DNA of 45,276 nt from an uncultured Ureaplasma sp. (GTDB lineage: Bacteria > Bacillota_I > Bacilli_A > Mycoplasmatales > Mycoplasmoidaceae). Shown here in pieces: positions 32,817 to 35,182 of this stretch. The number at the start of each line of letters is the position of its first letter. The stretch's first letter is position 1. The translations under genes and the position numbers were made by a program. The stretch spans positions 1-45,276 of the forward strand of contig CADCCU010000007.1 of the NCBI GenBank assembly GCA_902800015.1, given 5' to 3'. Under the pieces are notes generated by a model. The model was given only the letters and a program-made list of their open reading frames with translations, was not told where the DNA came from and did no database searches.

Positions 32817-32843
32817 GCAACATTACTCACATTATTCTATGAT
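32817..32843 (+). repeat. Upstream copy of a 27-bp promoter-like direct repeat
   Basis: GCAACATTACTCA then 14 nt ending TATGAT matches 33678-33704 (which ends TATAAT) at 23 of 27 positions with no gap. The two copies flank the NERD gene, 861 bp apart. Here the sequence after the -10-like hexamer is replaced by an IS end. Confidence 0.7.
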
Positions 32844-32915: not shown

Positions 32916-33620
32916 ATGTGATGAGTAATTTTAATTTCTATCCTTATACCAGTAATAATTTTTGGTATTTTAGCTGCTTTAATAATTGTTTCTAAAATTA
33001 AACATGACCGTGGTGATTACAATGATGGTGGTGGGAAACATATTGGTGTTGATCAAAAAGTTTCTTTTTTTACTCCAGCTAATGACAAAGCAGGAATAAT
33101 TGGAGAAAGAAGAGTGAGTTACCATCTTGAACCACTTTTAAGAAATGATGAATATTTACTAACAAATTTATTATTACCATTTATAAATGGTAAAAATACA
33201 GAGATAGATTGTATTCTTATATCACGTAAAGGAATTTTTTGTATTGAAATAAAACATTGAGTTGGTCATATTAGTGGGAATGATGAAGATGAATATTGAC
33301 TTCAGGAGTATGATGATCCCAGTTTAGATGATCGAAGGCATAAAAATCCGGTTAAACATAATAATTGACGCTGTTCTATATTAAAGAAAAAACTTAATAA
33401 TCGTTATTATGTAAATAATGTTGTTATTTTTTATGGTTTAGAAGATGGATATGGAATTAATTCAAAATATACTTATTCTCTTAAAGAATTTAGAGATTAT
33501 TATCGTAAATTAAATGATAACGTTATACCAGCAAATTTTCTAGAAAAAAATTATCAAATATTAAAACCATACATTGCAACTTTAGAGCAATTACAGAGAC
33601 ATAGAGAGGTTAATAAATAA
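32916..33620 (+). CDS. Membrane-anchored NERD-domain (nuclease-related) protein
   Basis: 234 residues with several TGA Trp codons. One N-terminal membrane segment (MWWVILISILIPVIIFGILA) is followed by the NERD core: AGIIGERRVSYHLEPLL, NTEIDCILISRKGIFCIEIK and a conserved W-V-G-H-I-S-G, then HKNPVKHNNW. The E..V...L, EIDCIL and IEIKHW residues match the NERD fold, related to Holliday-junction and restriction-type nucleases; NERD proteins are often carried by plasmids and islands. ATG 32916 is the only upstream start in frame; TGA-TGA follows it. It is flanked by an IS scar and promoter-like repeats. Activity is unknown. Confidence 0.85.
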
Positions 33621-33675: not shown

Positions 33676-33704
33676 TTGCAACATTACTCATATTTTTGTA
33701 TAAT
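33676..33704 (+). promoter_or_regulatory. Promoter P1 of the tandem-repeat RNA
   Basis: TTGCAA (33676-33681), 17-nt spacer, TATAAT (33699-33704): the best complete promoter in the window. The predicted start near 33711 lies just before the first 45-bp repeat. Confidence 0.75.
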
Positions 33705-33715
33705 AGGTATGTAAA

Positions 33716-33805
33716 ATTAGTGGTACGGGTGAACCGCATATAAACAGCCTAGATTAAAAAATTAGTGGTACGGGTGAACCACATATAAACAGCCTAGATT
33801 AAAAA
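33716..33805 (+). repeat. Two tandem 45-bp repeats, one mismatch
   Basis: Copies 33716-33760 and 33761-33805 differ only at 33736 (G) versus 33781 (A). The unit starts ATTAGTGGTACGGGTGAACC and ends CAGCCTAGATTAAAAA. Confidence 0.95.
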
Positions 33806-33810
33806 ATAAA

Positions 33811-33837
33811 AGCACAGCAGAAATGTTGTGCTTTTTT
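33811..33837 (+). terminator. Intrinsic terminator directly after the tandem repeats
   Basis: AGCACAGCA (33811-33819), GAAA tetraloop, TGTTGTGCT (33824-33832; one G-U), then TTTTT. It lies 19 nt before the tig start. Confidence 0.9.
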
Positions 33838-33842
33838 CTTTG

Positions 33843-33848
33843 TATAAT
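33843..33848 (+). promoter_or_regulatory. Promoter P2 (-10) of tig
   Basis: TATAAT 8 nt before ATG 33857 and after the terminator, which would give a leaderless tig mRNA independent of P1. Its -35 region would overlap the terminator stem. Confidence 0.5.
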
Positions 33849-33856
33849 AACTCATT

Positions 33857-35182
33857 ATGAAAATCATTGATACTAAAAAAGAAAATAACAAAGTTATTAT
33901 GACAATCAAAGCTGATTCTGAACTTTGATCAAAAGAATTAGCAAAAACTAAAAAACAATTAGCAAAAAATTTATCAATTCCTGGTTTTAGAAAAGGTCAT
34001 GCACCACAAAAAATAATTGATGAACATATTACTATAAACCAAGTAATTTCTGAAACTGTTAACAAGTATGTTAACCAATTAATAGATAAATTTATACATG
34101 AAGAAGCAAAAAAATATGCTGACATTATTGTTAATTCATTAAAAGTAGATTTAGTAGAAATTGATTCTGAAAAATTAACATTAAAATTTGAATTTGAAAA
34201 GCAACCAATTATTCAATTAGATGGTTATGATGCAATGGAACTTGCTTATATAGACCCAGAAGTAACTGATAAAGAAATTGAGTTTGAAATTAAAAATGCC
34301 ATTAAGAATGATTACATGCTATCTGCGAAAGAAGATGGAGTCATTGCTAAAGGTGATATGGTTAAATTTGATTTTGAAGGTTTCATTGGTGATAAAGCTA
34401 TTGATGATGGAGCAGCTAAAGATTATGAATTAGAAATAGGTTCAGGATTATTTATCCCTGGATTTGAAGACCAAATGATTGGACTAAAAAAAGGTGAAAA
34501 GAAAACCATAGAAGTTACTTTTCCTAAAAATTACCCAGTCGAAGAGTATCGCAACAAAAAAGCTAAATTTAATTTATTAATTAAAGAAGTAAGCAAAATT
34601 ACATACCCAACATTAGATAAAGTTTACTTAGCTAAATTTAATCTTCCAAATGTAGAAAACGAAACACAATTCAGAGACTACATTAAGAAAGAAATTAAAA
34701 GGGTTAAGGGTACAACTAAACGTCAAGAACTAATAAAGATAATTCGTGATTGAGTTGTTAAAAATATTAAGATTGATTATATTCCAGATTACTTTATTAA
34801 ATCAGAAACTAATGCTATCAAGCAAGATTATGAACTCCAAGCTAAAAATAAATTTAATAAAAAACTTGAAGATGCAGTTGTCGATTTAGGTTTTAAATCT
34901 ATGGATGATTTTAACAAACAAATTCATGACAAAGTTGTTAATAACATTAAGTTCAGTTTAGGAATGGATAAACTAATAACAGCTTTAGCTATTAATGTAA
35001 CTAAAGAAGAAATTGAAAAAGAAATCACAGACACTGCTAGAAAAATTAACATGAATGTTAATGAATTGTTAAATAATCAAAATATTTTGAATAGTATTAA
35101 ACAATATATGTTGAACGACAAAATTGTTCAAAAATTACTAGAAGTAAATAAGAAACAAACAAAAAATATTGAAAAGAAATAA
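33857..35182 (+). CDS. tig: Trigger factor
   Basis: Ribosome-bound chaperone and peptidyl-prolyl isomerase. 441 residues with TGA Trp codons. The ribosome-binding signature reads IPGFRKGHAPQKIIDEH; the FKBP-type domain spans about residues 160-240 (GDMVKFDFEGFIGDKAIDDG; LFIPGFEDQMIGLKKGEKKT); a helical C-terminal chaperone domain follows. No Shine-Dalgarno precedes ATG 33857. Its stop lies next to the convergent recO stop, with no terminator between. Confidence 0.96.

What the first reader, a model, noticed from the sequence alone, without database searches (positions are those of the whole stretch)
33676..33857. Promoter, two tandem 45-bp structured RNA domains and a terminator just upstream of trigger factor
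Seen: TTGCAA-N17-TATAAT, then two 45-bp units differing by one base, then a GAAA-capped terminator with a T-run, then a separate TATAAT and the tig ATG. The one difference changes U-G to U-A in a 5-bp stem (GUGGU/ACCRC), which preserves pairing. The loop ACGGGUGA can form a pseudoknot with the downstream GCCU next to an A-rich linker. Inference: either an abundant small RNA of about 120 nt or a tandem riboswitch or attenuator class not recognised here. Two promoters around one terminator would let the element switch extra tig transcription.
Basis: partly seen in the sequence, partly recalled or inferred. Interest (0 to 1): 0.8.

Follow-up and report, generated by a model that had tools for sequence, protein, structure and literature searches.

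The report
Toxinless RNA antitoxin beside tig
Just upstream of the trigger factor gene of a ruminant-gut mycoplasma relative sits a small RNA gene that looks like the RNA antidote of a bacterial self-poisoning (type III toxin-antitoxin) system, but without the toxin gene that should follow it.

Summary
The sequence observation is correct: a sigma-70-like promoter (33676-33704), two 45-bp units with one difference (U-G to U-A in a 5-bp stem), a GAAA-capped terminator (33808-33835), then a separate TATAAT and tig. The interpretation needs changing. Rfam has no match. The element has the anatomy of a type III antitoxin RNA gene: promoter, tandem H-type pseudoknot units, terminator. A related two-unit array lies directly upstream of an AbiQ/ToxN-family toxin in a sister genus (G053). 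The window unit resembles that unit more than all but 1 of 30,052 other window segments do, and pairing changes by compensation. Three arrays have no toxin downstream: the window's, a second one in the same genome between polC and whiA, and one in G028. The window and G028 arrays both follow an orthologous NERD-domain gene. The genome also carries a decayed remnant of a G053-type ToxN and a ToxN C-terminus cut by a contig end. Three close relatives lack the array at tig, and tig keeps its own TATAAT, so a tig riboswitch is unlikely. Best reading: a solitary type III-like RNA antitoxin acting on ToxN in trans, or a relic of one. Caveat: a covariance model built without the window units does not recover them.

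The parts
33676..33704 (+). promoter P1, TTGCAA-N17-TATAAT; its -35 region TTGCAACATTACTC is a 14-mer repeated elsewhere in this genome
33713..33757 (+). antitoxin-like unit 1 (45 nt): stem 33720-33724/33733-33737, pseudoknot 33727-33730/33747-33750, A-rich linker
33758..33802 (+). antitoxin-like unit 2: stem 33765-33769/33778-33782, pseudoknot 33772-33775/33792-33795; differs from unit 1 only at A33781
33808..33839 (+). intrinsic terminator, 12 pairs, GAAA loop, T-run
33843..33848 (+). TATAAT of tig; a TATAAT also precedes tig in relatives that have no array
33857..35182 (+). tig (trigger factor), where a toxin gene would be expected in a complete type III locus
32916..33620 (+). NERD-domain gene directly upstream; its ortholog in G028 also precedes a solitary unit of the family
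32817..32828 (+). GCAACATTACTC, exact direct repeat of 33678-33689; together they flank the NERD gene

Best explanation
A solitary type III-like antitoxin RNA gene. P1 drives an RNA of roughly 125 nt, ended by the terminator, which folds into two H-type pseudoknots joined by an A-rich linker. By analogy with ToxIN/CptIN/AbiQ, a ToxN-type endoribonuclease would cut the linker, bind the released pseudoknots and be held inactive. No toxin gene follows here, so the RNA most likely acts in trans, against the ToxN whose end is on contig C3 or against ToxN arriving on mobile elements (anti-addiction); a relic of a locus that lost its toxin is possible. tig is a bystander with its own promoter. Shown by sequence: layout, relationship to a ToxN-linked array, absence of a toxin downstream, absence of the array at tig in three relatives. 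Inferred: transcription, processing, binding, neutralisation.
For: Layout promoter - 2 units - terminator. G053 has the same layout directly followed by a 172-aa toxin that matches ToxN of B. thuringiensis (4ato, E 1.2e-16) and AbiQ (E 2.3e-26). Window unit core against the G053 unit: only 1 of 30,052 other segments of the window scores as high, 0 of 4,073 GC-matched; 1-7 of 4,000 dinucleotide shuffles reach the score, and 30-77 of 4,000 after taking the best of 12 arrays. Pairing kept through changes: stem pairs G-C/A-U and U-G/U-A/G-U/G-C, pseudoknot G-C/A-U (hand alignment). Synteny: the window array and the G028 array both follow orthologous NERD genes (67% identity). The same genome has a second toxinless two-unit array between polC and whiA, a site that is empty in G026. 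It has a decayed remnant similar only to the G053-type ToxN (0 of 3,000 shuffles) and a ToxN C-terminus cut by a contig end. ToxN genes occur elsewhere in the genus (8 of 36 genomes over the cut-off).
Against: The model built only from non-window units (R2) does not find the window units in the window, even with filters off and E up to 10. Linker sequences differ (AUUAAAAAAUU in the window, AGUGUAAAGAUU in G053), so cutting specificity may differ. The one intact toxin-linked example is in a sister genus. The covariation rests on about four independent sequences aligned by hand. No complete ToxN gene is in the 94%-complete assembly. No transcript data.
Confidence: 0.7

Rival explanations
1. Pure relic: a complete antitoxin-toxin locus inserted upstream of tig, the toxin gene was deleted (perhaps by recombination at the shared TATAAT), and the array is decaying without function.
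For: Toxin decay is seen in the same lineages: G050 toxin reading frame broken by 10 in-frame TAA/TAG, remnant on G000 C8. G028 keeps one unit with a broken stem pair.
Against: Both window units are intact and nearly identical, with a good promoter and terminator. The one base change keeps pairing. Two toxinless arrays in one genome, with no toxin trace next to either, is more than one accident.
Confidence: 0.3
2. The RNA partners the NERD-domain protein (a NERD + RNA module) rather than ToxN.
For: The array follows NERD orthologs in both the window and G028, although full-length NERD orthologs are found in only 3 of 36 genus genomes. The NERD protein resembles part of the PglW defence protein (E 8e-10).
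Against: The G000 C5 array and the G053 array have no NERD gene next to them, and the G001 NERD gene has no array within the sequence read. Co-location may reflect one shared mobile segment.
Confidence: 0.15
3. Tandem riboswitch or attenuator of tig.
For: A terminator stands between two promoter-like sites, and an H-type pseudoknot with an A-rich linker also occurs in small riboswitches such as preQ1-I and SAM-II (own knowledge).
Against: No Rfam match; no competing antiterminator was seen in the predicted fold; tig in three close relatives lacks it; relatives of the RNA precede ToxN or stand alone.
Confidence: 0.06
4. Dispersed DNA repeat without RNA function.
For: The -35 region TTGCAACATTACTC is itself a dispersed 14-mer.
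Against: The unit itself occurs only here with up to 3 mismatches, comes with a TATAAT and a terminator in relatives too, and keeps pairing through changes.
Confidence: 0.04

Closest known systems
ToxIN / AbiQ (type III toxin-antitoxin; PF13958 ToxN, PADLOC AbiQ)
   Same: Promoter, tandem short units that can form H-type pseudoknots, A-rich joint, intrinsic terminator; related array directly upstream of an AbiQ/ToxN-type toxin in G053
   Different: Toxin gene missing, tig in its place; units 45 nt rather than 34-36 nt (PMC5086642); Rfam has no match
CptIN (type III, Eubacterium rectale)
   Same: 45-nt unit with an A-rich second loop; one repeat is enough for antitoxicity (PMC4627078)
   Different: Unit sequence differs; the linked toxin in G053 is of the ToxN/AbiQ kind; no CptN next to the window array
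Pseudo-ToxI of phage PhiTE (PMC3475682)
   Same: ToxI-like repeats without a toxin gene, able to block ToxN in trans once expanded
   Different: Phage-borne and selected in the laboratory; here chromosomal, at core-gene sites
Orphan (anti-addiction) antitoxins of type II systems (PMC7354431)
   Same: Antitoxin without a partner toxin, proposed to neutralise incoming toxins
   Different: Protein antitoxins; here the candidate is an RNA

Membership tests
Type III toxin-antitoxin locus | tandem array of short repeats behind a promoter | tested here: met
Type III toxin-antitoxin locus | repeats fold as pseudoknots | tested here: inconclusive
   stem and pseudoknot pairs kept through compensatory changes in about four independent sequences, hand alignment; no probing data
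Type III toxin-antitoxin locus | intrinsic terminator after the array | tested here: met
Type III toxin-antitoxin locus | ToxN/CptN/TenpN toxin gene directly downstream | tested here: not met
   tig follows; so not a complete type III locus
Type III antitoxin RNA (as RNA family) | sequence relationship to an array linked with ToxN | tested here: inconclusive
   significant by alignment against shuffles and genome segments, supported by NERD synteny; but model R2 built without the window units fails to recover them
Type III antitoxin RNA (as RNA family) | neutralises and is processed by the toxin | not testable with these tools
   needs expression experiments
Rfam riboswitch families (preQ1-I, SAM-II and others) | match to the covariance model | tested here: not met

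The most novel reading that the evidence does not exclude
Ruminant-gut mycoplasma relatives carry free-standing RNA antitoxin genes at core-gene sites, spread without toxins, that immunise the cell against ToxN-bearing mobile elements: an RNA version of anti-addiction.
Probability: 0.35. Interest if true: 0.75.

Novelty: new variant of a known kind. Interest (0 to 1): 0.52.

Why it matters
Type III systems are recognised by starting from the toxin gene, so antitoxin RNAs without a toxin would be missed. Chromosomal toxinless arrays would show that RNA antitoxins can be gained, moved and kept on their own, as orphan protein antitoxins are, and would offer a simple test of RNA-based anti-addiction. 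The library searches returned no paper on toxinless type III antitoxins, and no title on type III systems in mollicutes; that library is incomplete.

Tried and rejected
Rfam at the gathering threshold and at E up to 10: nothing credible. Genus search with the 141-nt element found only itself and a chance 28-nt match. Loose 16-mer pattern: hits in relatives were few, 2 mismatches each, none resembling the whole unit. Viral contigs: exact 16-mer hits did not extend to the unit, and longer patterns found nothing. Own-genome search with the ToxN of G007 found nothing; only C-terminal pieces of ToxN are in the assembly. The covariance model without window units (R2) failed on the window; this is reported as evidence against. 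My first pairwise test with harsh gap costs was not significant; milder costs and a genome-segment control, chosen afterwards, were. Single-unit leaders of a second ToxN subtype (L060-L063) are no more like the window unit than chance. A fourth protein typed into one search was a mistake and is ignored.

Full report
Observation. The unit is unique in the genome with up to 3 mismatches. The predicted fold shows both unit hairpins and the terminator (z -2.27). Rfam gives nothing credible.

Where it is. The window is contig C7 of a 568-kb, 94%-complete genome in a genus of 36 small genomes. Family members that could be named are ruminant-gut genomes: uncultured Ureaplasma sp. RUG13511 and RUG13716, and goat reticulum isolate RGIG3423. 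In the three genomes with the most similar tig (G026, G027, G028; 61-67% identity), the acetyltransferase gene is followed directly by tig with its own TATAAT (TATAGAATATATA in G028). NERD gene and array are absent there, so about 1 kb was gained here or lost there.

What it is. The layout recalls type III toxin-antitoxin loci, defined as promoter, tandem repeats, Rho-independent terminator, toxin (PMC5086642, PMC8860590). ToxN (PF13958) is present over its cut-off in 8 of 36 genus genomes and 11 of 95 family genomes. In G053 (sister genus) a promoter, two units of about 43 nt and a terminator lead straight into a 172-aa protein. That protein matches ToxN of B. thuringiensis (4ato, E 1.2e-16) and the AbiQ model (E 2.3e-26), and it stands among defence-like genes. 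G050 has one unit and a decayed toxin.

How good the relationship is. Window and G053 units share loop ACGGRUGA, then CC, then ACAG and a C-rich arm, in the same order. With the A-tail removed, only 1 of 30,052 other window segments aligns to the G053 unit as well as the real unit does; for the C5 and G028 units it is 7 each. Arrays of the other ToxN subtype look random against it. Dinucleotide shuffles give about 0.0002-0.005, and 0.008-0.02 after taking the best of 12 arrays. On a hand alignment the stem and pseudoknot stay paired through changes: stem pair 1 G-C/A-U, pair 2 U-G/U-A/G-U/G-C with one break in G028, pseudoknot pair 3 G-C/A-U; the fifth stem pair of the window is not kept. Against this, a covariance model from the six non-window units does not recover the window units. 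That model is narrow, but the failure stands.

Independent support from position. A profile that included the window units (R1), run over 320 genomes of the order, gave strong hits only in G000, G028, G050 and G053. One hit was new: a second two-unit array in G000, contig C5, with its own TATAAT and terminator, between polC and whiA, without a toxin. In G026 polC and whiA are adjacent with no array. In G028 a single unit with promoter and terminator and no toxin lies about 0.5 kb after an ortholog (67%) of the window's NERD gene, separated by a 115-aa ORF. The window array also follows that NERD gene. This shared neighbour, in a genus where few genomes have the gene, is evidence independent of the unit sequence.

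Where the toxin may be. C8 of G000 carries a frameshifted remnant (about 60 codons) that aligns with the C-terminus of the G053 ToxN (score 56, 0 of 3,000 shuffles) and not with other ToxN subtypes. The end of C3 carries an in-frame 45-aa ToxN C-terminus whose 5' part is beyond the contig. So this genome had at least two ToxN genes, and one may be intact outside the assembly.

How it works, most likely. Shown: layout, relationship, missing toxin. Inferred: P1 makes an RNA of about 125 nt; each unit folds as an H-type pseudoknot; a ToxN-type RNase cuts the A-rich linker and is held inactive. Without a toxin next to it, the array would act in trans. Extra ToxI or pseudo-ToxI supplied from another replicon does suppress ToxN action (PMC3475682), and a single CptI repeat suffices for CptN (PMC4627078). 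Orphan protein antitoxins are discussed as anti-addiction modules (PMC7354431). A non-functional relic is the main rival. Type III antitoxins can be selective for their own toxin (PMC5086642), and the window linkers differ from those of G053, so the cognate toxin may be another ToxN. Leak through the terminator into tig is possible but there is no sign that it is regulated.

Noticed in passing
window 33676-33689 and 32817-32828; G000 C1:65517, C2:302, C3:62041, C9:4003, C10:206, C8:293: TTGCAACATTACTC, often preceded by ACCAACTTTTTTT, occurs 6 times exactly in 568 kb, with a variant GCAACATAGCTC. What follows varies: a lipoprotein-like gene, a tRNA-like sequence, the ToxN remnant, the window array. 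Possibly a recombination junction or shared promoter part.
   Followed up: partly
L060, L061, L062, L063, L064, L069 (upstream of ToxN): A second ToxN subtype in the genus is led by a single unit that can form a pseudoknot with an inserted hairpin (for example CCCAA with UUGGG in L063), with no terminator seen before the toxin.
   Followed up: no
L125 / L102, L108 (G217 C1:74100-75900): Two adjacent type III-like loci in a complete genome of another family, with arrays of 2 and 4 units whose loop and downstream arm change together (CCCAC/GGTGG against TTCGC/GCGAA).
   Followed up: no
L143 3110-7962 (G053): The ToxN-linked array lies among defence-like genes: a DUF262-like 607-aa protein, a PAPS-reductase-like 399-aa protein and an OLD-like ATPase fragment.
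   Followed up: partly
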